A stretch of 64,000 nucleotides of DNA from Cliona cf. orientalis (lineage: Eukaryota > Porifera > Demospongiae > Clionaida > Clionaidae): contig OZ005692.1 of the NCBI GenBank assembly GCA_963930775.1, positions 9,281,029 to 9,345,028 on the forward strand. Direction: 5' to 3'. A program made the translations under genes and the position numbers. The notes beneath the pieces were generated by a model. The model was not told the DNA's origin. It worked only from the letters and a program-made list of their open reading frames with translations, and searched no databases. Each line of letters opens with the position of its first letter. Position 1 is the first letter of the stretch. Of the stretch, positions 16,068-61,300 are shown piece by piece.

Positions 16068-19000
16068 GTTTTGTCAAGAAGTGCATCCAGCTGTATGAAA
16101 CGACAGTGGTTCGTCACGGCCTCATGTTGGTCGGTCCTACCATCTCAGGAAAGACCAAATGCTACGAGGTCCTCCGCGACTCGCTCTCCGCCCTCAAGGG
16201 CAAGTGTACTCCAGGAGGGGTGCAGTTTGAGCAAGTCCACACCTTCGTACTCAATCCCAAGTCCATCACCATGGGACAGCTATATGGAGAGTTTGACGCT
16301 CTCACTCATGAATGGTAAAAATTATCAAATCTCGTGCATGCATGCACCATACTCAAGCAATCACTATACTGTATAGCCGGAAAATTTGGCGGGGAATTAA
16401 ATTTGGCGGTTTGGTGGTCTATATTATACAACCGCCAAATTAAAATCCGTCAAAATTTCCTACTTGCATATATACGTATGGCGATCCCGTACCAAGCTGC
16501 CAAATTTAAATCTGCTACTATTCTTGCAATAGCGATTTAGGGCTCAACCACCAAATTTAATTTCCGCCAATATTTCCGGCTATACGATACATGCTCAACC
16601 ATCACCACTGATTAAGAATGCGAATTAGCTGGTGTCTTTCTTTATTTGCACTTGCATCATTGACCTGTTGAGCTATGGTCTACGCACATTAACATTTTTG
16701 CATGCCCTGAGTCTACTTTCGTTGCTATATTATATCAACCTCAGGACTGATGGTATTTTGGCCTGCCTGATCCGTGCTGGAGTGGCCAGTGAGACTCCAG
16801 ATAAGAAGTGGTTTCTATTCGATGGTCCTGTGGATGCCATATGGATTGAGAACATGAACACTGTGCTTGATGACAACAAGAAGCTCTGTCTCAGCAGTGG
16901 AGAGATCATTAAACTAACAGAGGTAAGCAATGAAAAGGAGTTGGTAAAAATTATAGTTATGTGAGTAGCTTACACATTACATTGTAGACGCCAGCAGAAA
17001 CTAATAATTGTAAGCAATGTAACATAGCTAGACACATAAAATAATGGATCAAGTGGGCATTCTTACTACGATCTATACAAAGATCATCTAGCTATAGATA
17101 TATACTTAGCCAGTCTTAATGTCTGACTCACCGCTTTTATTTGCAGCAAATGACAATGATGTTTGAAGTTCAAGACTTGGCAGTTGCCTCTCCTGCCACT
17201 GTGAGTCGCTGTGGTATGGTCTACCTGGAACCCTCTATTCTCGGACTCTCTCCCTTCGTCCGCTGCTGGATCAAGAAGCTTCCAGAAGCCATCGTTCCCC
17301 ACAAAGAGAAGCTAGAGATACTCTTTCACAGTTTCATGGAGCAGTCGATCAAGTTTGTGAGAAAGAACTTAAAGGAGATTGTCCCTACCAATAATGGGAA
17401 TTTGACATTCTCGCTGCTCAAGATTCTTGACTGCTTCTTTGTGCCATTCATATCAAAAGAGGTAATCATCAATGCTCATTAGCATTGCCTATGGAGCGTA
17501 CTCTGCACACTGTTATAAATGGTTACTAAGAGAATTATTTATTACGTGTACTTATCACAGAGTGTTTTCCGTACTATTAGGGATACACTGTTCCATCTGA
17601 CAAACTGAAGGCTATCTCTAAGCTGGTAGAGCCATGGTTCCTGTTTGCCCTAGTGTGGAGCATTGGGGGCAGCTGTGATGGAGACTCAAGGAAGAAGTTT
17701 GATCAGTACCTGCGAGACAAAATCAAGGAAGAAAAGGTGATTAATGAGATATCACGTTTCATGGACGTGAGCTAACCTTTATGAGAAATATTGCAACTAT
17801 TATGACACCAACACAATACCGTATAGCCGGAAATATTGGCGGGAATTAAATTTGGTGGTTGAGCCCAAAATCACTATTGCAAGAATATTGGCGGATTTAA
17901 ATTTGGTAGTTCAGTTCGGGATCGCCATACGTATATATGTGAATAGGAAATTTTGGCGGATTTTAATTTGGCGATTGTAATATAGACCGCCAAACCGCCA
18001 AATTTAATTCCCCGCCAAATTTTCCAGCTATACAATAATAATCTTACTAGTTCCTGCGAAAGATTTATTATGTACCCTACCTTATTTTGATGTTTCAGAT
18101 CTCTATGCCGTTCCCTGAGGGTGGCCTTGTGTATGACTACACCCTTGATGACGGAGGGGCCAGCAGGATCGGAGAGGATGAGGAGGAAGAGGAAAAGAAG
18201 AAAACAAAGGTACGTACCCCATTTGGAAGATTGTTACTCAACCATTTACGGCTAAATTATGCAATCAGCTTTATAATATGTGTTCGCTGGATACAGGCGT
18301 CCGATACTCTACATACTTAACCGATTTTTAAGTCTCAGAATGGCTCCATTGTGGCCCTAAAGTTTCTCAGATTACCTAAGATATTACACCATAGGTTTCA
18401 TACCATACAGTCGTGCCTAATTATTGAGCTTTTGCGATACCGTAGACTCTGGTTAATAAGCGCATGCGCTTATAGCGGTAAACGGAATGACAGTATGCGC
18501 TTAATAAAGGATATGCGCTTATATGGCACATAACCACGCCCACAAACGTTTGGGCACGTGATGGATGCCCGCTAGCACTAGCGCTCGATCGATCGATCGA
18601 GCACTTTAACGTTTACAGATGCCGCTCAAGATGACGAGTGCTGGCGATTTGTCGATCTTCTTGCATGATAACGTTATTCGTGGCCATCATTTCTCCAAAG
18701 AGTGCTGGAAAATCACTCCAAATACTTTCCAGCCGGTCAAGGTCAGGTTCATACAACGCCACGCCTATTAAGCGCATGCGCTTAATAAACAATAGCTTAT
18801 GACAAGAAGAGGGCATGCGCTTAATAAATAATGTGCGCTTAATAGCGAGGTGCGCTTAATAACCAGAGTTTACGGTACTATCAGTTGTATGGTGTTATTG
18901 TGTAGATTATTTTTTATTCAAAAGGAGGGGTGACAAAAATATGCTTTGGATGTTTTATCTGTTTTAGGTCCAATGGGTTGGCTGGATGGATGGCATGCCA

Positions 19001-58385: not shown

Positions 58386-61300
58386 ATGACTTCAAAAGAG
58401 GAGATGGAAGATCAAGACGAGAGTGGACTGCAACAGTACCCGCAGCTACACCAACCAGAGCCTCTGGTAAGTTTATGAGCAGTAATTATTGTGTATGCAC
58501 AGTCTCCACCTTCTCTTTCTCTCTCTCTCTCTCTCTCCCTCCCTCCCTCCCTGCCTCCTCAGGATGAACCCCCTCAGGTGAGAAAAACAGGTGGGTGGGC
58601 TGATGAGACTTTTGGAAGAGAGAAAGGAAAAAGGAAAAGGGACCAAGTTGAGGAAGAGTAAGTTTATTTTGGCCTCAAAAGATGCAAGCACCACTGCATG
58701 CACAAACCTTACATGTCATTGTACGGGGGAATTTAAATTATGGGGAGGTTCCTTCCTGCTAGACTAAACAAATTTTTTTATCATTTGTGTACATGATATT
58801 GATTGTAGTTTTACTCCATAGGCTGTTTTGTAGCAGCTATTAGCAATCGGGCCCCAAGGTTACTGGCAAATTTTACAGATAATGGGGATATTAAAGATGC
58901 TTCTCTCCCCCTCTCCCCCCCCCCCCCCCCCCCTCCCTTGTTCTCTCTCTCCTTCTCTCTCTTTCTCTCTCTCTCCCTCCCCTCACTTTACACCAGTGAG
59001 CGACTAAAGGTTCAAGATGACTCCGATGACGGTAGGCAATTACACAGTACACAATATTTGGAGCAGATTGATAGTTATTATCAATTTTGTTGAATGCTTC
59101 TATGCTCAGACATTCCCATCATCCCTGACATTGAAGAGCTGCAAGAGGAAGAGCTGACAACTCAGTTAGCAGCACCTCCATCGTGAGTGCACAACGTGTG
59201 TGTGTGTGTGTGTGTAATTGTCTAGCAATCAAAATTATATAGGTACATGTAATCTATCAGCTATGGGATGAGGGTACACATGGCCATGCATATCATGAAA
59301 CTGCTGTGCGTGTGTGTATTTCTGTTTTGTGCATGTGTGAGAATGTCTTGTCAGCTTGGCATGTGCCTTATCATCAACTCTTTGTGTATAGCTGGATGCA
59401 GATTACAGTAATTGAATTTGTGTTTACACTAAATTGAGTAACTGTTTCCAAGTCGTAAGCAGGTGTTAGAAATGAACAAGCACCTGATCCACAAGCACAT
59501 TGACTGTGCACTTATGTAGTGTAGTGTACACGCACTATACGACAACCTACACAATGTACTGTCTCCATGGAGCGCTCTATGTATAGTACTATACATGTGA
59601 GAAGTTTTCGCCAGGAGATAATTTCGCCATATTCACCCCTGCTTTGGCGTAAATTAATTCTTATCACGCTATTTTTTGTCCTTTGTAATGATATTACATA
59701 GAAGATATGGCACATTGGTAAACATTTCTATAATACAAAGGTAGCTAGGCTTGGCAAAATGTTCATCCAGTGGAAATTTTCACATAATTATAAAGTAGTG
59801 TTCAACACTCCCAAGTGATGTAGTCCCTGTTCCTCCAACATACAGTGTGTCAGTGACGAGGGTGGCTACCTACAAGCAGCTGGACTCTGACCTCCACAAG
59901 CATGCTGGACTATTTATGCTGGTGAGTTTTGGAAGCATCCAGTGTACTTTAAGTGCACTGAGCTGCTCGTATTGTGTCTAAAATTCTCTTGTGTGACTAA
60001 AGCTTTAAGACATTGAACATTTCATCTTTTACAGGATGGAGAGATTGATTTGAAGCTGTTAGCCAAGGTGCTATCGCCAGAACCAGAGGTCACTGAGGTG
60101 AGAGTGTAATTGCTTAATTTTCTCACCCCCCAGAGCCCACCCTCGAGAAAAAGAGAGGGGGGGGCCTGGGGTATGGAGCTTAATCTGTGCCAAAAATGCA
60201 ACTTCAGCTAAAGCTACCACTACTGCTACTTCATCCTAATTCGCTACACCATCTGCTACTGCATCCGCGTTTCGCTGTCCGCTACTGCATCCGCATTCAG
60301 CTGTCCACTACTGTGTCCGCTACCGAGTCCGCTACTGCATCCGCATTCGGCCGTCCGCTACCGAGTCCGCTACTGCATCCCCATTCAGCCTTCCGGATCC
60401 GCTACTGCATCAGTATTTAGCCGTCCGCTGCTGTGTCCACTAGACTCAGATCCATTAAAGCGCATGTGCATAATATTTAATATAAGATTGTACCTCGCAA
60501 GCGAAGTTCTCGCACGCAGCATAATATACGTGGCATGTATCAATGGTGACGATGGTTACTAGCTATATTATAGAGATCTAAAATCTGTGTGCTATATATA
60601 TTATACTACCGTATAGCCGGAAATATTGGCGGGCATTAAATTTGGCGGTTGAGCCCAAAATCGCTATTGAAAGAATATTGGCGGATTTAAATTTGGCGGT
60701 TCGGTACGGGATCGCCATACGTATATATATGAGTAGGAAATTTTGGCGGATTTTAATTTGGCGGTTGTAATAATAGACCGCCAAACCGCCAAATTTAATT
60801 CCCCGCCAAATTTTCCGGCTATACGGTATTATAGCTACACAAATTGCTGAACAGTCGACGTTCACACTTTTATATTCTTGCCAGGTAATTATTTGTTCAT
60901 GCACAGTCTTACCATAACATGCATGGCCTGCAGTGGTGGGCGTGGCTTCCATATCCTCTATAATCATTATAGTAACCATCTTTTTACAATGGCAACAACC
61001 AAATGGGGGACGAAGCTATTAACCGTCACCATTGATGCATGTCACGTCTGTTATGCTGCGTGCAAGAACTTCACTCGCAAGGTACAATCTTGTACGCGCA
61101 TGCGCTTTAACGTATCGGAGTCCACACAGATACAGTAGCGGACTCAGTAGCGGACGGCTGAATGCGGATGAAGCCTGTAGCGGACTCGGTAGCGGACACA
61201 GTAGCGGACGGCTGAATGCGGATGCAGTAGCGGACAGCGAAACGCGGATGCAGTAGCAGAGGGTGTAGCGAATTAGGATGATGTAGCAGTAGTGGTAGCT

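What the first reader, a model, noticed from the sequence alone, without database searches (positions are those of the whole stretch)
16367..60828. Ten or more fold-back families share one terminus, TA-CCGTA, and carry arrays of their own motif
Elements at 16367, 17817, 18438, 22367, 24003, 25710, 27521, 28424, 30076, 31318, 37597, 48531, 48922, 51042, 51225, 53380 and 60607 nearly all begin TACCGTA (or TACYGT) and end with its complement, most with TA at both borders. Inside, each family has a different short motif repeated in both orientations: TTTGGCGG, CGAAAGTTTTCTCC, TGCGCTTAATA, AATTGCGA, GGGCGCTTACCCGG, GGCGCG, TTTTCGTC. Unrelated interiors with the same ends suggest one transposase recognises CCGTA, while the subterminal motif multiplies within each family. 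I know of no described group with this build, though I cannot search.
Basis: partly seen in the sequence, partly recalled or inferred. Interest (0 to 1): 0.75.

Follow-up and report, generated by a model that had tools for sequence, protein, structure and literature searches.

The report
Miniature pogo-like transposons with shared tips
The look-alike hairpin elements appear to be short, non-coding passengers of a group of "pogo"-type jumping genes in an animal-like genome: they share end letters because their enzymes are relatives, each family repeats its own presumed enzyme-docking site, and the longer elements carry an unexpected second gene.

Summary
In detail: the 17 places are inverted-repeat elements, 14 beginning exactly TACCGTA; the word occurs 30 times against 3.7 expected. 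They are MITEs of pogo-like transposons. Nine transposase-bearing elements with this tip at both ends (two with one tip base changed) were found, and five of eleven window families have a coding relative (one matched at one end only). The transposases are Passer-like (BrkDBD, HTH_Tnp_Tc5, DDE_1; DD34-36D). All 12 CCGTA-ended ones in the tree form one clade (100/99), apart from six CAGT-ended. So the shared tip reflects one transposase clade, not one transposase. The family motif is a site of about 17 bp beside the tip, repeated subterminally in the coding elements too; related transposases have related motifs: presumed docking sites. Two empty sites show insertion at TA. The commonest families, A and B, have no coding relative yet. 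The surprise is a second gene with a HIRAN domain in all 13 loci with a CCGTA end (two as remnants) and some CAGT-ended elements; 41 of the 52 best HIRAN hits lie within 3 kb of a DDE_1 hit (chance about 0.5%). My paper searches showed no such gene in transposons.

The parts
16367..16589 (+). MITE, family A (TACYGTATAGCCGGAAA; motif AATTTGGCGG, 17-bp step at left end)
17817..18037 (+). MITE, family A
18438..18877 (+). MITE, motif TTATTAAGCGCATGCGC (6 sites at <=5 mismatches); relatives with transposase L082 (both ends; 35-bp match) and L084 (one end); a copy elsewhere is interrupted by pogo element L025 at the site equal to window 18723 (TA)
22367..22520 (+). MITE TACCGTGTTTATGCTAATAGAACGC; relative with transposase L072 (one end found); array not significant
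24003..24224 (+). MITE TACCGTATTTCTTCTAAAAATTCGG; relative with transposase L073 (516-3159)
25710..25920 (+). MITE, family B (TACCGTATAGYGGGAAATTTTCGAGGG)
27521..27735 (+). MITE, family A
28424..28618 (+). MITE TACYGTAGATCG, AATTTTCGTC motif; no transposase partner seen; array not significant
30076..30261 (+). MITE TACTGTAATT; no transposase partner seen; array not significant
31318..31535 (+). MITE, family B, left tip with extra bases, right tip worn (arms 31330-31528)
37597..37822 (+). MITE TACCGTATCCGATCTAATTAACGCGCC; relative with transposase L034 (490-3309); 9-mer array not significant, 17-bp step at right end
48531..48741 (+). MITE, family B
48922..49295 (+). MITE TACCGTAGAAACTGGTTGTTAAGCGC; relative with transposase L074 (1068-3246, 449-aa open frame)
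51042..51221 (+). MITE, family F (CCGGGTAAGCGCCC motif); array not significant in this copy
51225..51416 (+). MITE TACCGTAGGNCNGGTTTTAATTGCG; motif TAATTGCGA; 17-bp step at right end
53380..53586 (+). MITE, family F
60607..60828 (+). MITE, family A

Best explanation
[quoted passage not shown] Shown: TA target use at two empty sites, the shared tip on transposase-bearing elements, one transposase clade, and a motif of about 17 bp placed 4 bases inside the tip and repeated near the ends in the coding elements as well as in the MITEs. Inferred: the catalytic part of the transposase reads the common TA-CCGTA tip, while the two helix-turn-helix domains (BrkDBD and HTH_Tnp_Tc5) read the 17-bp site, half AT-rich and half GC-rich, of the size of a CENP-B box (17 bp, recalled). 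As the DNA-binding part diverged, the site diverged with it, which gives families with the same tip and different interiors. Extra sites help to load transposase. Each family is mobilised mainly by its own transposase line. Also inferred: the HIRAN protein encoded by the longer elements is an accessory factor that handles DNA ends or repair during transposition.
For: Coding elements with TACCGTA at both ends and DDE_1 between: L025, L034, L031, L070, L073, L074, L076; L078 (one tip TACCCTA) and L082 (one tip TACCATA); one end only: L072, L075, L077, L084. Of the first 30 DDE_1 loci, 8 gave a clean terminal repeat in the TIR scan, 2 of them TACCGTA and 6 with TACAGT. Control: of 30 Tc1-like DDE_3 loci, 6 gave an enclosing terminal repeat, none with a CCGT or CTGT tip. 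Tree of 44 DDE_1 segments: 12 of 12 CCGTA-labelled rows on one side of a 100/99 branch, 6 of 6 CAGT rows on the other. Domains BrkDBD + HTH_Tnp_Tc5 + DDE_1, against CENP-B_N (3), HTH_psq (1) or HTH_Tnp_Tc5 alone (1) in the five tested outside the clade. DD34-36D in 8 of 8. L076 transposase matches the CENP-B DNA-binding domain structure 1hlv, E 3.6e-6. Window MITEs align to their coding relatives, e.g. 37597 to L034 (84% over 81, 78% over 101), 48922 to L074 (83% over 102), 24003 to L073 (80% over 99). Motif: L025 6 sites, L034 6, L076 7 of 8 within 320 bp of the ends, permuted motifs mean 0.04-0.24. Step: mean self-identity at 17 bp is 7.5 of 17 over 22 coding-element ends, 3.4-5.5 at all other steps from 10 to 30. 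Empty sites: a B MITE in L039 interrupts a Tc1-like reading frame that is whole in L040 and L045; L025 sits in a copy of the 18438-type MITE whose window copy has a single TA there.
Against: For six of eleven window families (A, B, 28424, 30076, F, 51225), including the most abundant A and B, no coding relative was found; a candidate long B element turned out to be a MITE followed by unrelated sequence. Five of 17 elements show no significant array. The 17-bp step is the best step in only 8.25 of 22 coding ends and 8.8 of 32 MITE ends (31318 left out), and in the MITEs the peak is broad (7.1 at 17, 6.6 at 16, 6.4 at 15). In L073 and L082 only two sites pass the motif scan. In L074 the first HTH is weak for BrkDBD (E 0.021) and no worse for CENP-B_N (E 0.013). 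No reference Passer sequences could be put in the tree, so the Passer name rests on domains and spacing. Most coding copies seen are broken. In both empty-site comparisons the empty copies are diverged (about 74% for the first; 80% and 94% on the two sides for the second), and in the first the related copies read CA, not TA, at the target.
Confidence: 0.88

Rival explanations
1. One transposase recognises only the CCGTA tip and moves all families in trans; the interiors are passengers.
For: The tip is the only sequence common to all families. Families A and B, the commonest, lack a known coding relative.
Against: Several coding elements each share ends and motif with one window family; the motif goes with the transposase subclade; the conserved terminal repeat continues past the tip through the 20 bases compared.
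Confidence: 0.08
2. The motif arrays are host transcription-factor sites that MITEs picked up, e.g. E2F-like TTTGGCGGGAA in family A, and are not transposase sites.
For: Family A and B motifs resemble E2F sites (recalled consensus, not tested here).
Against: The same positional pattern (4 bases inside the tip, subterminal, both orientations, often a 17-bp step) is found in coding elements with unlike motifs.
Confidence: 0.1
3. They belong to another fold-back or TIR superfamily (e.g. MULE or Foldback), and the TA is chance.
For: Elements are fold-backs with internal repeats.
Against: TA target shown at two empty sites; DDE_1 transposase between CCGTA-type ends in nine elements.
Confidence: 0.02

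Closest known systems
Passer family of the pogo superfamily (PMC7386202, passages seen; PMC9976928, passages seen)
   Same: BrkDBD + HTH_Tnp_Tc5 + DDE_1, DD35D, TA target duplication, short terminal repeats, 400-500 aa transposase.
   Different: The second paper describes one gene per element; here a second HIRAN gene is common. The word HIRAN does not occur in the main text of either. Tip letters of known Passer elements were not visible to me (CCGT and CAGT not in the main text of PMC9976928). Subterminal 17-bp arrays and a CCGTA MITE radiation were not in the passages.
Drosophila pogo / Tigger (CENP-B-related) elements
   Same: TA target, two HTH domains, DDE_1; pogo transposase binds a short site present more than once per end (recalled).
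   Different: CENP-B_N instead of BrkDBD (passages; here L015, L018, L019); CAGT tips (seen here in L011, L012, L013, L015, L019, L021).
Tec/TBE elements of ciliates (passage of PMC7325037)
   Same: A precedent for a Tc1/mariner-group element with more than one gene.
   Different: There the extra gene of Tec is a site-specific recombinase, not HIRAN, and the transposase is DD34E.
Emigrant/Lemi1 and other pogo-derived MITEs (recalled)
   Same: Small TA-flanked derivatives of a pogo-like element.
   Different: No family-specific arrays or second gene that I recall; not compared by sequence.

Membership tests
MITE | short, terminal inverted repeats, target duplication, high copy number | tested here: met
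   154-440 bp, terminal repeats in 17 of 17; TA empty sites for two elements; the A/B tip TACCGTATAGC 5600 times in the genome
MITE | no coding capacity | not tested
   inferred from length; no ORF search of the elements was run
Passer (pogo superfamily) | BrkDBD + HTH_Tnp_Tc5, or HTH_Tnp_Tc5 alone, with DDE_1 | tested here: met
   L076: all three over cut-off; L034: all three over cut-off in separate frames; L074: HTH_Tnp_Tc5 and DDE_1 over cut-off, BrkDBD E 0.021 (weak, CENP-B_N E 0.013); L078: BrkDBD and DDE_1 over cut-off, the middle frame not submitted; L031: HTH_Tnp_Tc5 over cut-off, BrkDBD E 0.013
Passer (pogo superfamily) | DD35D catalytic spacing | tested here: met
   34-36 residues in 8 of 8, exactly 35 in 4 of 8; residues picked by eye
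Passer (pogo superfamily) | TA target site duplication | tested here: met
Passer (pogo superfamily) | one gene only (description in PMC9976928) | tested here: not met
   HIRAN stretch inside the terminal repeats of L025, L031, L034, L070, L073, L074, L076, L078, L082 (L025 and L031 only remnants)
Passer (pogo superfamily) | groups with reference Passer transposases in a tree | not testable with these tools
   no reference sequences held
single shared transposase (reader) | all families served by one enzyme | tested here: inconclusive
   separate transposases found for 5 of 11 families; cross-mobilisation needs an assay

The most novel reading that the evidence does not exclude
Pogo-superfamily transposons of this animal-like host are two-gene elements: a transposase plus a HIRAN-domain protein that takes part in transposition, perhaps by gripping free 3' ends as the HLTF HIRAN domain does (recalled). 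The gene spans at least two pogo lineages (BrkDBD-type with CCGTA tips and CENP-B_N-type with CAGT tips), so it may be an old part of the machinery. The 17-bp site arrays of the MITEs are transposase landing strips that co-evolve with the paired HTH domains.
Probability: 0.45. Interest if true: 0.68.

Novelty: new variant of a known kind. Interest (0 to 1): 0.52.

Why it matters
It replaces "unrelated families with one end" by a testable rule: tip read by the conserved catalytic part, family motif read by diverging HTH domains. That makes a natural series for working out how pogo/CENP-B-type DNA-binding domains change specificity, with bearing on the origin of the CENP-B box. A conserved second gene would also change the picture of pogo elements as single-gene transposons, and would give a natural partner protein to test in transposition.

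Tried and rejected
Transposase_1 (mariner, PF01359) gave no match in the genome or in any control genome, so it says nothing. Tc1-like DDE_3 has at least 150 matches; in its first 30 loci 6 gave an enclosing terminal repeat, none with a CCGT or CTGT tip, and 24 gave none within the 1.5-kb flanks; the MITE in L039 is an insertion into one of them. L079 was first labelled CAGT-ended; reading its flanks showed that the supposed tip lies inside a longer repeat, so the label was dropped. A 2.5-kb pair of family-B tips on C1 was read as a possible coding element and was a plain MITE with unrelated sequence behind it, as far as the 1,891 bases fetched show. A genome-wide count of paired tips at fixed distance did not complete. 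The 7-mer count against its backwards control is uninformative. The E2F idea for family A was not tested. The host was not identified; a piece with a dynein heavy chain domain lies in the window (PF17852). Species, and presence of HIRAN in pogo elements of other hosts, could not be tested with the collections on hand.
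Full report
OBSERVATION. The window lies in a 216.8-Mb genome of 149 contigs, unnamed; a dynein heavy chain domain is encoded at 17156-17458. All 17 listed places hold inverted-repeat elements of 154-440 bp. 14 of 17 begin TACCGTA. The tip is far above chance in the window (30 against 3.7). In 356,020 held bases (window plus loci, two overlapping loci left out) a fixed search found 29 elements of 100-700 bp with this tip and none for each of ten control tips. 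The 29 include near-copies of the same element (L035, L036, L037; L026 and L029). The loci are not a random sample: many were fetched for transposase or tip matches.

WHO MOVES THEM. A search for the pogo-type DDE_1 domain gave 150 scored matches of 210 candidates. In the first 30 loci, terminal repeats around the domain were seen in eight: TACAGT in six and TACCGTA in two, L025 and L034. L034 has the ends of window element 37597. A protein search with L034 (87 matches) led to more loci, and seven further elements with both ends were found: L031, L070, L073, L074, L076, L078 and L082. L078 and L082 have one base changed in one tip. L072, L075, L077 and L084 show one end. For L069, L071, L079, L080, L081 and L083 no clean pair of ends was found. 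As a control, of 30 Tc1-like DDE_3 loci six gave an enclosing terminal repeat, none with a CCGT or CTGT tip. The ends of L073, L074, L034, L082 and, on one side, L072 match window elements 24003, 48922, 37597, 18438 and 22367. For 18438 the match to L082 is 35 bp only.

WHICH TRANSPOSASES. In a tree of 44 DDE_1 segments the 12 rows with CCGTA tips all lie on one side of a branch with support 100/99, and the six CAGT-tipped rows on the other; L075 was too short to enter. An earlier version with L079 labelled CAGT needed two changes; the label was dropped after its flanks were read. Domains are BrkDBD, HTH_Tnp_Tc5 and DDE_1. BrkDBD is weak in L074 (E 0.021, with CENP-B_N at 0.013) and in the partial L031 frame (E 0.013), and over its cut-off in L076, L034 and L078. 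Of five proteins outside the clade, L019, L018 and L015 have CENP-B_N, L028 has HTH_psq, and L011 has HTH_Tnp_Tc5 alone. Spacing is DD34-36D. These are the features given for the Passer family in PMC7386202 (passages).

THE MOTIF. In the coding elements the bases that follow the tip after a 4-base spacer are a bipartite site, for instance TCTAATTA-NN-GCGCCA in L025 and L034 and TCTAATTA-NN-CGAACGG in L070, repeated near both ends. Copies are often head to tail at 17 bp: positions 12, 29 and 46 in L076; 13 and 30 in L025 and L070; 12 and 29 from the right end of L034 and of its MITE 37597. Averaged over 22 coding-element ends the self-match peaks at a step of 17 (7.5 of 17 identities; 5.5 at 18, 5.2 at 16, 3.4-5.0 elsewhere); over 32 window ends (31318 left out; families A and B count several times) the peak is also 17 (7.1) but broader. 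Related transposases have related motifs: L074, L078, L082 and L084 share TTAAGCGCATG-type sites, L025, L034 and L077 share TCTAATTANNGCGCC-type sites, and L076 and L081 share CTCRATCARACGCC. In L073 and L082 only two sites pass the scan. In the MITEs, 10 of 17 have arrays beyond all 60 shuffles, two are borderline and five are not significant. I infer that these are binding sites of the two HTH domains; nothing here measures binding.

INSERTION. In L039 a family-B MITE interrupts the frame of a Tc1-like transposase; joining the flanks with one TA gives a continuous frame that matches L040 and L045 (128 and 126 of 173 bases), which read CA at that point. L025 sits inside a copy of the 18438-type MITE; the window copy carries a single TA at 18723 where L025 is inserted.

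THE SECOND GENE. Several coding elements hold a second open frame on the other strand. Pfam gives HIRAN for three such frames at E 2e-5 to 2e-4, one at and two under the curated cut-off, and a profile of four of them finds the HLTF HIRAN structures at E 0.006 to 0.011, with weaker unrelated hits behind. tblastn finds it in 21 of the 43 DDE_1 loci held at that time and in none of the other 38 loci or the window, and in L082 and L084. All 13 loci with a CCGTA end have it; in L025 and L031 it is a remnant (L025 passes at E 2e-4, not the stricter limit). L071 and L079, in the same clade, do not show it. In nine CCGTA elements with both ends and two CAGT-ended ones (L019, L012) it lies within the terminal repeats, on the strand opposite the transposase in ten of eleven (L012 is on the same strand). 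Genome-wide, of the best 52 HIRAN hits 41 lie within 3 kb of a DDE_1 hit (36 on the opposite strand); of the best 100, 54 (49 on the opposite strand); chance is about 0.5% per hit; the last 50 of 150 listed rows were not entered. The HIRAN query came from such an element and the DDE_1 list was enriched for its kin, which favours the association but can hardly explain it. Eleven of the remaining hits in the best 52 have no DDE_1 hit nearby. Of 11 element pairs tested, which share members and so are not independent, dN/dS was 0.13-0.26 in six with finite dS (0.26 for L082/L084 at dS 0.22; the other five have dS 1.7 to 3.1, near saturation), 0.69 in L073/L080 (aligned at 45% though one search gave 85% over a shorter stretch, so doubtful), not computable in one near-identical pair (dS 0), and with saturated dS in three; a twelfth pair could not be compared. 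This suggests selection on the protein. Searches of the paper library for HIRAN with transposon, pogo, accessory protein and transposase terms showed no eukaryotic transposon with HIRAN in the titles and abstract starts listed; one search was swamped by unrelated names (15 of 707 listed) and one search listed 10 of 1,572. The word is absent from the main texts of three pogo papers.

CORRECTIONS MADE ON REREADING. The end of the 31318 element is 31535, not 31540. The DDE_3 control was added.

LIMITS. Families A and B, which make up seven of the 17 elements, have no coding relative in what could be fetched. No named relatives could be searched. The paired-tip genome count did not complete.

Noticed in passing
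L034:619-1011, L070:732-1214, L073:2631-2963, L078:891-1292: HIRAN-domain open frame as second gene of pogo-like elements, on the strand opposite the transposase.
   Followed up: yes
window 60171-61341: Another fold-back with long arms built of repeats of GTCCGCTACTGCATCCG; the family-A MITE at 60607 lies between its arms.
   Followed up: no
window 46105-46786: Fold-back cluster with TTAGACACTGTTTAG-type arms, without the CCGTA tip.
   Followed up: no
window 16367, 17817, 27521, 60607: Family A carries TTTGGCGGGAA-like words that resemble E2F sites (recalled); the A/B tip occurs 5600 times in the genome, so a host regulatory effect is possible.
   Followed up: no
G000:C4:4294959, C18:2297666, C1:25254954: HIRAN hits in open frames of 334-369 aa next to DDE_1 hits; possibly intact two-gene elements.
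   Followed up: no
L083:1759, L082:417: Further TACYGTA family, TATCCTCCCRAAAATAAGCCCC, not among the window families.
   Followed up: no
L035:2414-2664, L036:2416-2666, L037:2414-2664: The same CCGTA-type MITE (one tip TACCTTA) next to the DDE_1 gene in three near-identical loci: probably a passenger copied along with another pogo element.
   Followed up: no
window 19139-19200 and on: Long CT dinucleotide run close to the dynein-like coding stretches.
   Followed up: no
C16:3874603, C14:7643105, C14:7544386 and eight more: HIRAN hits with no DDE_1 hit within 3 kb: other carriers, decayed elements or host genes.
   Followed up: no
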